A DNA stretch of 64,000 bases from Paratrimastix pyriformis (Eukaryota > Preaxostyla > Paratrimastigidae), in NCBI GenBank assembly GCA_027972325.1, contig JAPMOS010000030.1, positions 318,048 to 382,047 on the forward strand, given 5' to 3'. Of this stretch, positions 20,949 to 38,900 are shown one piece after another. The translations under genes and the position numbers were made by a program. Under the pieces are notes generated by a model. That model was given only the letters and a program-made list of their open reading frames with translations, was not told the origin of the DNA and did not search any database. How positions within the stretch are numbered: the first letter of the stretch is position 1; each line of letters opens with the position of its first letter.

Positions 20949-23900
20949 ATGAGTGGCGGCGATCGTGTTGAACCTCGCGCATGGATTTGTAAAAAAGTTT
21001 CCGAATCTTTTCTTCTCGACCCTGCCCAGATCGACGGCGTCATTGCTTCCTCCGGTTTCGCCGCTCGGTTTGACGCTTTCTTTAAAGAAGGCAAAATCAA
21101 AAGAGTCATTTTTTATATGACCGAGGACAAGAGGTTTGCATCGTTCTTTTCCACAATGTTGCCACATGTTTTCTCTTTTCCTTGTTTTCGCCTGTCCTTT
21201 AGGCTGACTCTGACGATGGATGCTATCGGGGAGTCCATTGTGCCCGTTGTGAAGGGGCAAGGGAAGTGCTGCTTTTTCTTCAGGTTGAGCTCCCGCCAAA
21301 TTACTTTCGCCAATGTTGACCAGGAGGTTCGCACATTGAAGTTGCACGCCCTGACCAACCTTTTGACGCCTCTCTTTTTCGGAACCCCCCACATAGCTCC
21401 TCTTCGGCCAAATGGAGTCCCACTTCCTGGACTCGTTTGTTGAGCATCTCAAGTTTATTTTTATCCCTGCTCTCGAGTCCCAAGAGTCCTGGGGCCAGGT
21501 CGGTGGTTCATTTCCGCACCTTCACGACAGGCTCACCTCGCCCGTGTCTCCTCGTGACTTTTTTTGCATCATCAGTCATCTCGGGCGGAGATGGTGGCCG
21601 ATTTCCTCCATGGTGTCAAGAAGTTCACCAAGACGATGGAGGCCACCGTGCGTAGCCTGCACGAGGTGATCAAGCTCGATGCACCCGAACCCAAATTTGT
21701 CGTGGCTGACGAACCCCAGGCAATTCTGGAGGCCTCCCAGAACCCGGAGCTTGTCAAGTACTACGAGAGTCCGTTCCGCTGACTTGAGAAGAGGGATGGG
21801 ACGAGGGGTGGGGAGGGGAGGTTGCCCGCTGTCAGCATTCCCCCACGGTCATATCCACACAACTCACCTTTTTTTTTTTTTGTCTCCATCATCCCCCCAT
21901 CACCCCCCTCCAGACCTGATCGGTGCCCGCTGGTGCCGGACGGTCGAGCAGGTCCTGGTCGAGTCGGACCAGGTGCGCAGCGAGCAGGACGACGTGGGTC
22001 CCGATGCCGAGCTGGACCACTGGAAGGAGCGCATGGCCCGGTTCAGCATGATCACCGACCAGCTTCGGCTGCCCGCCTACAAGGCCGGCATCATGGTCCT
22101 GCACCAGGCCCACTCCAAGGTGTACCGCGCCTGGTACAAGTTCGACGCGCGCATCACGGACGCGTCCAATGAGGCCAAGGTCCGAAATCAAAATAAAAAA
22201 AATGTCCCCCAAAAAGAGTCGACATCACCCCTGGGGTACCACTGACAAAATTTCTTCAAACATGTGAGTTTCTCCTTCTTTGTATGAACACCCACACACA
22301 GGACAATGTCAAGTACCTGTACAACCTGGACCGGTTCAGACACATCTAACACTGCACTTCCCGGCGCACCACACGTACCCCACACACACCCGCACAGGAC
22401 AATGTCAAGTACCTGTACAACCTGGACCGGTTCTCCCAGCCGCTGTACCAGGCCAACCCGGTGGAGATGCTGGACGCCGTCCCGGGCATGATCAAGGCCA
22501 TTCGCCAGATGCACAGGTCAGACACATTCCCCGCCCTTCCCGCCCTCATCATCATCATCCAATCATCATTCGCCAGATGCCCAGGTCAGACACATTCCCC
22601 CGCCCCTCCCCTGCCACCCTCCGCCCTCTCAGAATGCACGGATTCTGAATTCTGCCTGACCAATGCCACCCACCAAATGCACACACATTCCCCAGCCCAG
22701 CCCCCAGCCCCCGCCCTCTCATCCAATCATCATCATCAATCATCATCATCAATCATCATCATCAATCATCATCAATCATCATCAATCATCATCAATCATC
22801 ATCAATCATCATCAATCATCATCAATCATCATCAATCATCATCAATCATCATCAATCATCATCAATCATCATCATCATCATCATCATCATCATCACTATC
22901 ACCAGCCCTTATCTGCGCGGATTCTGTGTGATGACCAAGACCCCCACGCGCCCTCTCGTCATCTTTCCGAACCCGGTTCTGCCTGGCGCGCGCGCGCACA
23001 CACAACTCCCTCACCCCCAACCTGCTCTCCACACATCCACCAATCTAGCCTGGCCCGGTACTACAACACGAGCGAGCGGATGACAGCCCTGTTTGTCAAG
23101 GTGACCAACCAGATGATCGTCTGCTGCAAGAACTACATCCTTCTGGGGGCGCCCCTCTGGGAGCAGGACCGCAATAGCCTCATTGCCAAGCTGCACAGCT
23201 GCATCGACCTGCGCGACACGTACAGGGAACAGTACAGGCGCACCAAGGTTCGAGTGTGTGGGGGCACGTGTCATGATGTCGGTTGGATGATGAAGATTGT
23301 TGGATGGTGATGGATAAATTATGGTCGACCGGATTGGTGATGGACAATGATGATGGGCGATGAGGATGATTGGGGATGATGATGATGAGGATGATGAGGA
23401 TGATGAGGATGATGAGGATGATTGGGGCTGATGATGATGATGATGATGATGATGATGATGATGATGATGAGGATAGACGATGATGATGATGATGACGATG
23501 ACTGGAAGATGTTGATGATGATGGCTGCTGGACAAGCCATGACTCCTGTCTGATCCATTCCCCCGTCCCACCCCGTCCCACCCCGACACCCGCATCCAAC
23601 ACACACAACACACACAGGCCGAGCTGCAGGCCATCCCGCAGGGCAAGCAGTTCGACTTCTCGGAGGTGTCGATCTTCGGCAACTTCGACATGTTCTGCAA
23701 GCGCGTCCAGAAGTTGGAGGACGTGGTGCAGACCATTGAGCAGTTCTCGACCCTCAAGAAGACCACCCTGGAGAGGTCCGCCTGGCCGGCCGTCATCATC
23801 GTCGTCATCATCATCATCCAATCATCCAATCAGCAATCAAATCTAATCATCCAATCATCATCCAATCATCATCACAATCATCATCATCATCATCATCATC

Positions 23901-35900: not shown

Positions 35901-38900
35901 CACCGCCTCAGGTTTGCTACATGGACGAGTCCCTGCGCACCTTGCTGCCCCATCTGGCCGAGAACCTCGAGTCCTGCCAGAAATCGCTGTCCGGCTACCT
36001 GGAGACCAAGCGAGGCCTCTTCGCCCGGTTCTACTTTGTCTCGGACCCCAACCTGCTTGAGATTCTGGGCCAGGCGTCCGACCCCAACGCCATCCAGCCC
36101 CAGCTCAAGAACATCTTCGATAATATTGCCCGGATTGACTTCGACAAGACCCACAAGTCCCACGTCATCGCCATGAACTCGTCCGAGAGTCTGTTGTCAT
36201 CACCCAATCATCATCATCATCCATTCATCATCATCATCATCCAATCATCATCATCCAATCATCATCATCCGATCATCATCTCCGATCATCATCATCATCA
36301 TCATCATCATCATCATCATCATCCGATCATCATCATCCGATCATCATCATCCGATCATCATCATCCGATCATCATCATCCGATCATCATCATCATCATCA
36401 TCATCATCATCATCGTATCCAATCTTCATCCCCAATCTTCATCCAAAACCTGCCCCCGCACACGCACTTCTCGCACACCCTGAGCTCACATCCCGACTTC
36501 CCAACACCTCCCCCACATCCCACCACCAGACGAGCACATCGACTTTGCCAAGCGCGTGGTGGCCGAGGGCCACATTGAGCACTGGCTCCAGCTGCTGGTG
36601 GACGAGATGCGACACACCCTGATGCTGGTCGTAAAGGACAGCCAGGTCCACGAGAAGGACTACAACCTCGAGGAGTTCATCTGGAAGTACCCCGCCCAGG
36701 TGGCTCTGCTGAGCCTGCAGATCCGTTGGACCCGGGACTGCGACCTGGCCCTGCGCAATGTCAAGGTCCGTGTCAAGACCCGGAAAATATATATAATGTT
36801 GAGCATCACATTGGATGTGTTGGGTTGGATTGGACGCATGTGATGGATGGTGTCAAGGTACCACGCAATGAATGACTGTGCTGTGATAATGGGACGCGGG
36901 ACTGTGACGGCCTGGGCCTGCGCAATGTCAAGGAAAATTGGGATGTTTCTGATTGGTCAATGTGTATGTCGCGTTGTGATGGAAAGCAATACGTATGTCG
37001 AGTGTTGTGATGGACCCAGGACTTTCGCCTCATAGTCACACCCGCCACTGTCTCCCGACCCCATCCCCTCTCGTCTCCCTCCCTCCCGCCTCCAAGAATG
37101 CCCCCTTCACAAAATAATCTCATCCTCTTTTCACACCCTTTCCTTCCCCCCCTCTGCAGACCTCCAAGAACGCCCTGGTGGAGTGCAACAAGGGCAACAA
37201 CAACGTCCTGCGGCAGCTCATTCAGATGACCACCCAGGAGCTCACCCAGATGAACCGCACCAAGCTCGAGACCCTCATTACCATCCAGGTCTGTGATATG
37301 TGTGTTGTGTGTGTGTTGATATGTGAGTGTTGATATGTGTGTGTTGATATGTGTGTGCTGATATGTGTGTGTTGTGTGTGTGTTGATATGTGTGTGCTGA
37401 TATGTGTGTGTTGTGTGTGTGTTGATATGTGAGTGTTGATATGTGTGTGTTGATATGTGTGTGTTGATATGTGTGTGTTGATATGTGTGTGTTGATATGT
37501 GTGTGTTGATATGTGTGTGTTGATATGTGTGTGTTGATATGTGTGTGTTGATATGTGTGTGTTGAGATTGTGTGTTGATGTATGTGTTTGTGAGCACCCA
37601 GATGAACCGTACAAAGCTCGAGACCCTCATCACCATCCAGGTCCGGGGATGATGCATGGATCAAATGGGTGGGTGGTCAATGTTTTGGGTGGATGTGTGT
37701 TGGTCTGGCTGGGATGGATGGCCCTTTCCGTCCACGCATCATCATCATCGTCCAATCCTCATCATCGTCCGCACATCAGCATCATCATCATCTCCCACTC
37801 CTCATCCACTCATCATCATCGCCCAACCATCACCCCCCCGCACGCCGCAGGTCCACCAACGCGACGTCTTCGAGGAGCTCGTCCATCCAATCATCATCAT
37901 CATCATCATCATCACCTCCCCCCCCTCCTACAGGTCCACCAACGCGACGTCTTCGAGGAGCTCGTCCGCCTGCGGATCAAGTCGCCCTTCGAGTTCGACT
38001 GGCTCAAGCAGACTCGCTTCTACTGGAAGTCCGACGAGGAGATCGTCAACATCCAGATCACCGATATCGACTTCCTGTACTGCTACGAGTACCTGGGCTG
38101 CACGGAGCGACTTGTGATTACCCCGCTGACGGATCGATGCTACATCACCCTGGCCCAGGCTGTCGGCATGTACCTGGGCGGCGCACCCGCTGGGCCTGCC
38201 GGCACGGGCAAGACTGAGACCGTCAAGGTCGGCCGCTGCTGCCCCCCACCGCCACGACCTTGATCACTCATTGGTCATTGATGATGATCATGTCGATGTT
38301 GTTGTTGTTGTTGTTGTTGTTGTTGTTGTTGTTGTTGTTGTTGTTGTTGTTGTTGTTGTTGATGATGATGATCATGATCATGATCATGTTGTTGATGATG
38401 ATCATGTTCTATCATCATCACCACCACCACCACGACCACCACGATCACCAACCACCACTCTCCACCACCAACTCTCACCACAATGGCGATGAGCACTTTT
38501 AACACTAAGCTCTGCATTATTTGAGACCCTTCCTCTCCGATCTTCCTTCAATTCGCAATTCGCACTCCTCACACACCCGCACCCCCGCACGGCACTTCGT
38601 GCACCCCCAGGATATGGGCACTCCATTCAATATCGCTCATCCTTTCCTTCCCTTCACCCAGGATATGGGCAAGGCTCTGGCCAAGTACGTCGTGGTGTTC
38701 AACTGCTCCGACCAGATGGATTTCCGCGGCCTGGGCAAGATCTTCAAGGGCCTGGCCCAGTCCGGCTCATGGGGTGATGTCCGTCTCCCGTCCCCTCATC
38801 ATCATCATCATCATCATCATCATCATCATCAATCGTCTTGGCGCCAGTGTGTTCGATGCTCGCCCTCTCCATCATCATCATCCGATCATCACCACCCAGT

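What the first reader, a model, noticed from the sequence alone, without database searches (positions are those of the whole stretch)
22289..38690. Exon-intron junctions repeatedly copied into the neighbouring intron (dynein gene)
At least nine dynein junctions have a second, sometimes third, copy inside the adjacent intron: exon 6 start (22300 and 22398), exon 6 end (22500 and 22570), exon 15 end (29372, 29530, 29752), exon 21 end (33217 and 33352), exon 24 end (34868 and 34968), exon 27 end (36735 and 36895), exon 28 end (37248 and 37600), exon 29 start (37851 and 37934), exon 30 start (38612 and 38662). Copies keep the splice site and are 80-97% alike, with microsatellite between them. This looks like a repeated mutational process that lengthens or relocates introns by tandem duplication across AG|GT, a mechanism proposed for intron gain.
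Basis: partly seen in the sequence, partly recalled or inferred. Interest (0 to 1): 0.8.

Follow-up and report, generated by a model that had tools for sequence, protein, structure and literature searches.

The report
Local tandem duplications crossing splice junctions
In this microsatellite-rich protist genome, short local duplications often spill over the edge of an exon and leave a decaying second copy of the exon edge inside the intron; this lengthens introns but shows no sign of making new ones.

Summary
Eight of nine dynein junction pairs are confirmed; the ninth (exon 30 start) is a 15-nt match. The gene is a DNAH5/gamma-type axonemal dynein; for seven of the eight a relative carries the piece once, exon 15 being uncovered. 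In 312 kb of the same genome, exon-edge copies lie in the adjacent intron at 37 of 856 junctions (2.0 expected). They are mostly direct repeats and look unconstrained (44 of 106 changes synonymous; 40-45% expected if the exon also changes). Junction preference is small if any: in the same introns, exon edges and intron segments are copied 99 and 71 times over five offsets, where random placement predicts a ratio of 0.85; cluster counts give 38 to 17. None of 546 introns shows the signature of intron gain by AGGT duplication. Best explanation: frequent local tandem duplication; events crossing one junction survive because the outer splice site still gives the normal mRNA. In passing: this genome's U1 snRNA has AG in place of UU at positions 5-6 (8 of 8 genes), matching its GTCNG 5' splice sites.

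The parts
20265..51024 (+). Axonemal outer-arm dynein heavy chain gene (DNAH5/gamma type); 53 predicted exons, some of them intronic copies; donors mostly GTCNG
   Evidence: Gene finder; spliced segments match Dynein axonemal heavy chain 5 at E 1.9e-284 and 2.6e-71; Pfam DHC_N2 and AAA_6
22288..22337 (+). Truncated copy of exon 6 start with its 3' splice site
   Evidence: 47/50 to 22384-22433
22567..22610 (+). Copy of exon 6 end with 5' splice site
   Evidence: 41/43 to 22499-22541, one gap
28226..28415 (+).
   Evidence: the repeat finder family D16; 33/36
29529..29597 (+). Second copy of exon 15 end with 5' splice site
   Evidence: 65/69 to 29377-29446, one gap
29735..29787 (+). Third, decayed copy of exon 15 end, GT lost
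   Evidence: 39/53
33353..33402 (+). Copy of exon 21 end, GT lost
   Evidence: 48/50 to 33214-33263
34967..35006 (+). Copy of exon 24 end, GT kept
   Evidence: 36/40 to 34867-34906
36892..36933 (+). Copy of exon 27 end, GT lost
   Evidence: 36/39 to 36728-36766, one gap
37595..37643 (+). Copy of exon 28 end, GT kept
   Evidence: 46/49 to 37243-37291
37830..37884 (+). Copy of exon 29 start with 3' splice site
   Evidence: 50/55 to 37912-37967, one gap

Best explanation
The copies are products of frequent local tandem duplications (median start-to-start distance 251 nt, middle half 100-564) in the genes of this microsatellite-rich genome, probably by replication slippage or template switching in simple sequence. 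A duplication that crosses exactly one splice junction survives because splicing at the outer site still gives the normal mRNA. The extra exon edge is then intronic and decays without coding constraint, while the simple intron sequence beside it turns over faster by insertion and deletion, which makes the copy look as if it ended at the splice site. Introns are lengthened, and a copy can expand into an intronic array. Shown: local, mostly direct duplications that reach the junction, absence from a relative's protein for seven of eight dynein cases, and decay consistent with no coding constraint. Inferred: the slippage mechanism, survival by use of the outer splice site, and that junctions are not targeted.
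For: Masked self-comparison of 312 kb: 235 direct against 11 inverted local repeats at score >=20 within 1.5 kb. Exon-edge copies at 37 of 856 junctions, null 2.0. 28 of 37 alignments reach within 2 nt of the junction. Exon interiors 50-250 nt from the junction have copies in the adjacent intron in only 6 of 2151 segments, edges in 33 of 766, null 2 of 2032: expected of contiguous units that cross the junction, not of dispersed copying. Non-microsatellite intron segments are copied too, 86 of 1500. Changes in the 29 copies reaching the junction: 44 of 106 synonymous; expected 0.40-0.45 if the copy is free and the exon changes only synonymously. Intron parts show homology above every null in 19 of 29 pairs; in these, gap/mismatch is 0.36 against 0.08 in exon parts, and intron parts are simpler (1.69 against 0.35, all 29). 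In L005, 11 of 14 intronic copies of one exon end share a donor variant absent from the exon, so that array grew mainly from intronic copies.
Against: Clusters: 38 junction to 17 intron-only (0.69) against 0.46-0.50 simulated. Longer recognisability of pairs with one constrained member does not explain this well, since the excess stays among pairs with identity of at least 90% (25 to 8) and 95% (17 to 7). In matched introns the edge:intron ratio is 99:71 where 0.85 is simulated. Exon-only clusters (15) are about as many as intron-only ones (17), and 49 of 1783 exon segments match elsewhere in the same exon against 3 in a null, so strong removal of exon duplications is not shown; frame filtering is hinted at (13 of 25 exon pairs at a distance divisible by three, against 25 of 72 and 40 of 117). 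The synonymous share does exceed the expectation if only the copy changes (0.25-0.29, p 0.0001-0.004), so the neutral reading rests on the exon also changing; over all 37 copies the share, 54 of 154, lies below the mixture expectation in one of three settings (p 0.01). In 10 of 29 pairs the intron part does not beat the null, though 9 of these 10 have exon identity of 0.9 or more. Gap costs differed between the alignments compared. No RNA data, outgroup or reads.
Confidence: 0.67

Rival explanations
1. A mutational process that prefers splice junctions, for instance linked to transcription, R-loops or splicing, copies exon edges with their splice site into the intron.
For: Cluster ratio 0.69 against 0.46-0.50 simulated, kept at identity of at least 95% (17 to 7); matched edge:intron 99:71 against 0.85 simulated; similarity drops within about 16 nt of the junction in the 22 pairs with exon identity of 0.9 or more (mean ungapped identity 0.74, 0.49, 0.32, 0.30).
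Against: The matched difference is significant at one of five offsets only; the unmatched rates do not differ (33/766 against 86/1500, p 0.16), though these mix introns of different length; the drop fits simple-sequence turnover; intron-only counts are lowered by masking and by leaving out those that overlap junction clusters (27 to 17).
Confidence: 0.17
2. The copies are functional: alternative micro-exons, alternative donors or acceptors, or recursive splice points.
For: Some copies keep frame and flanking AG/GT, and the gene finder took several as tiny exons; 15 of 29 changes are synonymous in the 22 pairs with identity of 0.9 or more.
Against: The synonymous share fits a free copy beside a constrained exon (p 0.12-0.35 in that subset, 0.50-0.92 in all 29); GT is lost in 7 of 17 donor copies; the relative has no duplicated residues at seven of eight dynein sites.
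Confidence: 0.06
3. Assembly artefact: haplotypes or overlapping ends joined at microsatellites.
For: If this is P. pyriformis, the assembly was made with Canu, Nanopolish and Pilon (PMC10703272, passages), in microsatellite-rich sequence.
Against: Copies range from 72% to 100% identity; 62 of 106 changes are nonsynonymous, not expected of two working alleles; a 14-copy array has shared variants.
Confidence: 0.07
4. Intron gain by tandem duplication of an AGGT-bearing exon segment (Rogers model).
For: Some duplications do cross AG|GT.
Against: 0 of 546 introns show exon tail matching intron end, or exon head matching intron start, beyond shuffled maxima.
Confidence: 0.02

Closest known systems
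Junction-crossing tandem duplication in the potato RdRp gene (PMC4974935; abstract and passages)
   Same: A tandem duplication crosses an intron-exon boundary and inherits splice signals.
   Different: There a new intron arose; here existing introns grow, at many loci.
Novel intron positions in Drosophila by sliding or tandem duplication (PMC2891723; abstract and passages)
   Same: Local duplications within genes affect splice sites; it cites 1901 duplications in D. melanogaster lines, 624 with exonic sequence, and selection against them.
   Different: That work concerns new positions and AG/GY proto-splice sites inside exons; no position shift is shown here.
Rogers AGGT model of intron gain (as described in PMC4974935, passages)
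   Same: Tandem duplication involving AG|GT.
   Different: The required register between exon ends and intron ends is absent in the 546 introns tested.
Minisatellite birth by local duplication and array expansion (general knowledge, recalled)
   Same: L005 array: an exon end expanded to 14 intronic copies.
   Different: The seed is an exon-intron junction.

Membership tests
Local tandem duplication | Direct orientation and short distance | tested here: met
   235 direct against 11 inverted at score >=20 within 1.5 kb
Local tandem duplication | Whole unit, intron part included, is repeated | tested here: inconclusive
   Intron part beats all nulls in 19 of 29 pairs
Local tandem duplication | The extra copy evolves without coding constraint | tested here: met
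   44 of 106 changes synonymous, expected 0.40-0.45 if the exon changes too; above the copy-only expectation of 0.25-0.29
Intron gain by AGGT tandem duplication (Rogers) | Exon tail repeated at intron 3' end, exon head at intron 5' start | tested here: not met
   0 of 546 introns (of 636 predicted; the rest too short or at piece ends) beyond shuffled maxima
Intron gain by AGGT tandem duplication (Rogers) | Intron absent from close relatives | not testable with these tools
   No relative of this genome is held
Introners | The same sequence family in many introns of unrelated genes | tested here: not met
   Exon edges match other introns at score 19 at most, five random introns drawn per junction; no exhaustive search was made
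Alternative exons | Copies appear in transcripts | not testable with these tools
   No RNA data held

The most novel reading that the evidence does not exclude
Splice junctions are preferred sites, roughly one and a half to two fold, of an ongoing duplication process tied to transcription or splicing in simple-sequence introns, which keeps giving introns second usable splice sites and so drives intron lengthening and, over time, intron shift.
Probability: 0.17. Interest if true: 0.65.

Novelty: new member of a known kind. Interest (0 to 1): 0.35.

Why it matters
It gives one genome with many independent junction-crossing duplications of different ages: 37 of 856 sampled junctions. That makes it possible to measure how such events feed intron length and cryptic splice sites, and whether junctions are favoured. 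It also shows how a striking pattern can arise largely from local duplication and fast simple-sequence turnover.

Tried and rejected
A first one-strand gene finder drifted to wrong splice models and was replaced by a two-strand model. An impression from single alignments that changes were mostly synonymous did not hold in the full count. Intron gain was tested and rejected. Inverted copying was rejected as the main mode: 11 inverted against 235 direct. The papers search for Preaxostyla splice sites found nothing; one search listed nothing relevant. A pattern for a canonical U1 had a spacing that could not have matched this genome's U1 stem, so its empty result means nothing; one search replaced it. 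A segment meant to check exon 15 by homology aligned only from residue 85 on, so exon 15 is unchecked.

They brought results against my first reading: the junction excess persists among young pairs and in matched introns, and exon-only duplications are not clearly depleted. I therefore lowered the main explanation from 0.75 to 0.67 and raised the targeted rival from 0.10 to 0.17 and the novel case from 0.12 to 0.17.

Dropped rows: predicted exons under 60 nt or with coding score under 12 were treated as non-exon (on); copies more than 4 nt from the junction (8 of 37) were left out of the intron-part and splice-site counts; 90 of 636 introns were left out of the intron-gain test. Pieces L010 (5,000 N) and L019 (GC 0.39) were kept. 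In one search the exon 6 end row uses a weaker place than the copy aligned. Segments overlap by intron and are not independent.
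Full report
WHAT WAS CLAIMED. Nine dynein junctions were said to have second or third copies in the neighbouring intron, read as a process that lengthens or relocates introns by duplication across AG|GT.

THE GENE AND THE GENOME. The window is C223:318048-382047 of a 56.06-Mb, 495-contig genome. Size and GC (mean 0.595 over 20 pieces) resemble Paratrimastix pyriformis (56.63 Mb, 633 scaffolds, GC 60.9%; PMC10703272, passages); the identity is likely but not proven. A two-strand gene finder trained on this genome predicts a dynein gene at 20265-51024. 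A spliced 753-residue segment with the copies left out aligns over residues 2-751 with axonemal dynein heavy chain 5 (E 1.9e-284) with short gaps only, none at the duplicated pieces of exons 24, 27, 28 and 29 and one residue beside exon 21. A second segment does the same across exon 6 (E 2.6e-71). So seven of the eight confirmed cases are intronic extras by homology; exon 15 lies in a stretch that did not align.

CHECK OF THE OBSERVATION. Eight of nine pairs are confirmed at 39-69 aligned nt and 90-96% identity; the third copy of exon 15 end is 39/53; exon 30 start is a 15-nt match and is not counted. A further, unlisted case lies at 28226-28415.

IS IT GENERAL. I took the window, 48 kb next to it and 20 pieces of 10 kb from other contigs: 312 kb and 636 predicted introns. 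After masking simple repeats, direct local repeats outnumber inverted ones 235 to 11 (score >=20, within 1.5 kb). Of 856 junctions of trusted exons, 37 have an exon-edge copy at score >=16, where unrelated introns give 2.0. The dynein gene has 8 of 85 and the rest 29 of 771 (p 0.02); its introns are longer (median span 326 against 167), and copies are commoner in longer introns (2 of 422 under 200 nt, 35 of 434 above), so this is not clearly a property of the gene. Spans with copies have a median of 561 against 192, which fits lengthening but also larger targets.

IS IT SPECIAL TO JUNCTIONS. Fifty-nucleotide segments with a copy in the same intron: exon edge 33 of 766; exon 50-250 nt inward 6 of 2151; intron 86 of 1500; null 2 of 2032. 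Edge and intron do not differ (p 0.16), but this compares introns of different length. In the same introns, over five offsets, edges score 18, 27, 22, 15, 17 and intron segments 14, 19, 11, 14, 13 (n 359, 297, 239, 199, 168); one of five comparisons is significant (p 0.027), and random placement predicts a ratio of 0.85. Clusters are 38 with a junction to 17 within introns (0.69), where random placement predicts 0.46-0.50; the excess stays at identity of at least 90% (25 to 8) and 95% (17 to 7), so it is not just that constrained pairs last longer. Masking lowers the intron-only count, and 10 of 27 intron clusters were left out because they overlap junction clusters. My reading is a general process with at most a modest junction bias, about 1.5 to 2 fold.

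EXONS. Exons carry local duplications as well: 15 clusters, and 49 of 1783 segments match elsewhere in the same exon against 3 in a null. Of 25 exon pairs 13 lie at a distance divisible by three, against 25 of 72 junction and 40 of 117 intron pairs. Some of these may be protein repeats or wrong exon calls. Removal of exon duplications by selection is therefore assumed, not shown; the near absence of exon interiors among intronic copies is what contiguous units crossing a junction give anyway.

FATE OF THE COPIES. In the 29 copies that reach the junction, 44 of 106 changes are synonymous; a free copy beside an exon that changes only synonymously predicts 0.40-0.45, a free copy alone 0.25-0.29. 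Over all 37 the share is 54 of 154, and codon positions 1, 2, 3 carry 46, 45, 63 changes. Donor GT is kept in 10 of 17 and acceptor AG in 11 of 12. The intron parts look much less alike, but they are simpler sequence and, in the 19 that beat the null, carry more gaps per mismatch (0.36 against 0.08); 10 of 29 intron parts do not beat the null, which stays partly unexplained. In L005 one exon end has 14 further copies. All read ACT where the exon has ACC, which could also be a later change in the exon; but 11 of 14 share the donor variant gttcgctc against gttcgttg at the exon, so the array grew mainly from intronic copies.

NOT INTRON GAIN. In the AGGT model the exon tail should recur at the intron's 3' end and the exon head at its 5' start. 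None of 546 introns exceeds shuffled maxima.

MECHANISM. Best supported: local tandem duplication, probably slippage or template switching in simple sequence; events across one junction survive because use of the outer splice site leaves the mRNA unchanged. The slippage step and the splice-site choice are inferred.

PRIOR WORK. Duplication across an intron-exon boundary is described for a potato gene (PMC4974935, passages), and sliding or tandem duplication for novel Drosophila intron positions (PMC2891723, passages). My searches for such duplications (4 of 4 papers listed, 15 of 85, 6 of 6) showed no genome-wide survey of this exact pattern; the library holds open-licence papers only.

SIDE FINDING OF GREATER INTEREST. 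Donors are GTC in 333 of 420 trusted junctions, and in 40 of 42 in the dynein gene. The model was seeded with dynein donors, so I repeated the prediction with a flat donor model on the 20 other pieces: C follows GT in 182 of 372 introns, against 30% background. All eight U1 snRNA covariance-model matches (E 2e-10 or better, though below Rfam's cut-off; 41 of 992 candidates scored) begin AUACAGACCU. A pattern free at positions 5-6 and anchored on this U1's stem finds eight genes, all with AG; one anchored on the upstream element finds seven, all with AG. Sites pair better with this U1 than with the canonical one in 299 of 420, worse in 66 (the canonical sequence is recalled). ACUUACC was invariant in the 236 yeast and outgroup species in which U1 was found, where a Psi5-to-A change was considered and not found (PMC10581693, passages). 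The oxymonad Streblomastix has A, U, G at +3 to +5 (PMC1501061, passages). A diplonemid has a second U1 with a run of C at the 5' end beside a normal one (PMC12621601, passages), so U1 5' ends are known to vary. Searches on this point; in their listings and the passages read I saw no report of this change.

Noticed in passing
U1 loci L023-L030; donors throughout the window, e.g. 29418, 33265, 37289: U1 snRNA starts AUACAGACCU: AG in place of the usual UU (pseudouridines; canonical sequence recalled) at positions 5-6, in 8 of 8 U1 genes found with these positions left free and all 8 covariance-model hits. The 5' splice sites match it: GTCNG, with GTC at 333 of 420. It looks like a genome-wide compensatory change of U1 and the 5' splice site, and is more surprising than the finding itself.
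   Followed up: partly
window 35215-35330 (+): A U5 snRNA gene (60.8 bits, E 1.1e-7) lies inside a dynein intron in the same orientation, with its own upstream element.
   Followed up: partly
window 35158-35171; upstream of U1 loci L023-L030, U6 loci L037-L039, U2 loci L040-L041: A shared element GTCCCATAA, about 55-70 nt upstream of snRNA genes, looks like a common promoter element: exact in 7 of 8 U1, both U2 and 3 of 4 U6 loci read, and the U5 gene.
   Followed up: partly
L005 785-2115: Fourteen copies of one exon end within an intron, 11 of them sharing a donor variant not in the exon: an array born from an exon-intron junction.
   Followed up: yes
window 24259-24419 and 25407-25567: A ~160-nt sequence (CTCCGCGCCGAAACTCATTACGAGGCC...) occurs at both ends of a 1.15-kb intron segment, like a long direct repeat flanking an insertion (seen by eye).
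   Followed up: no
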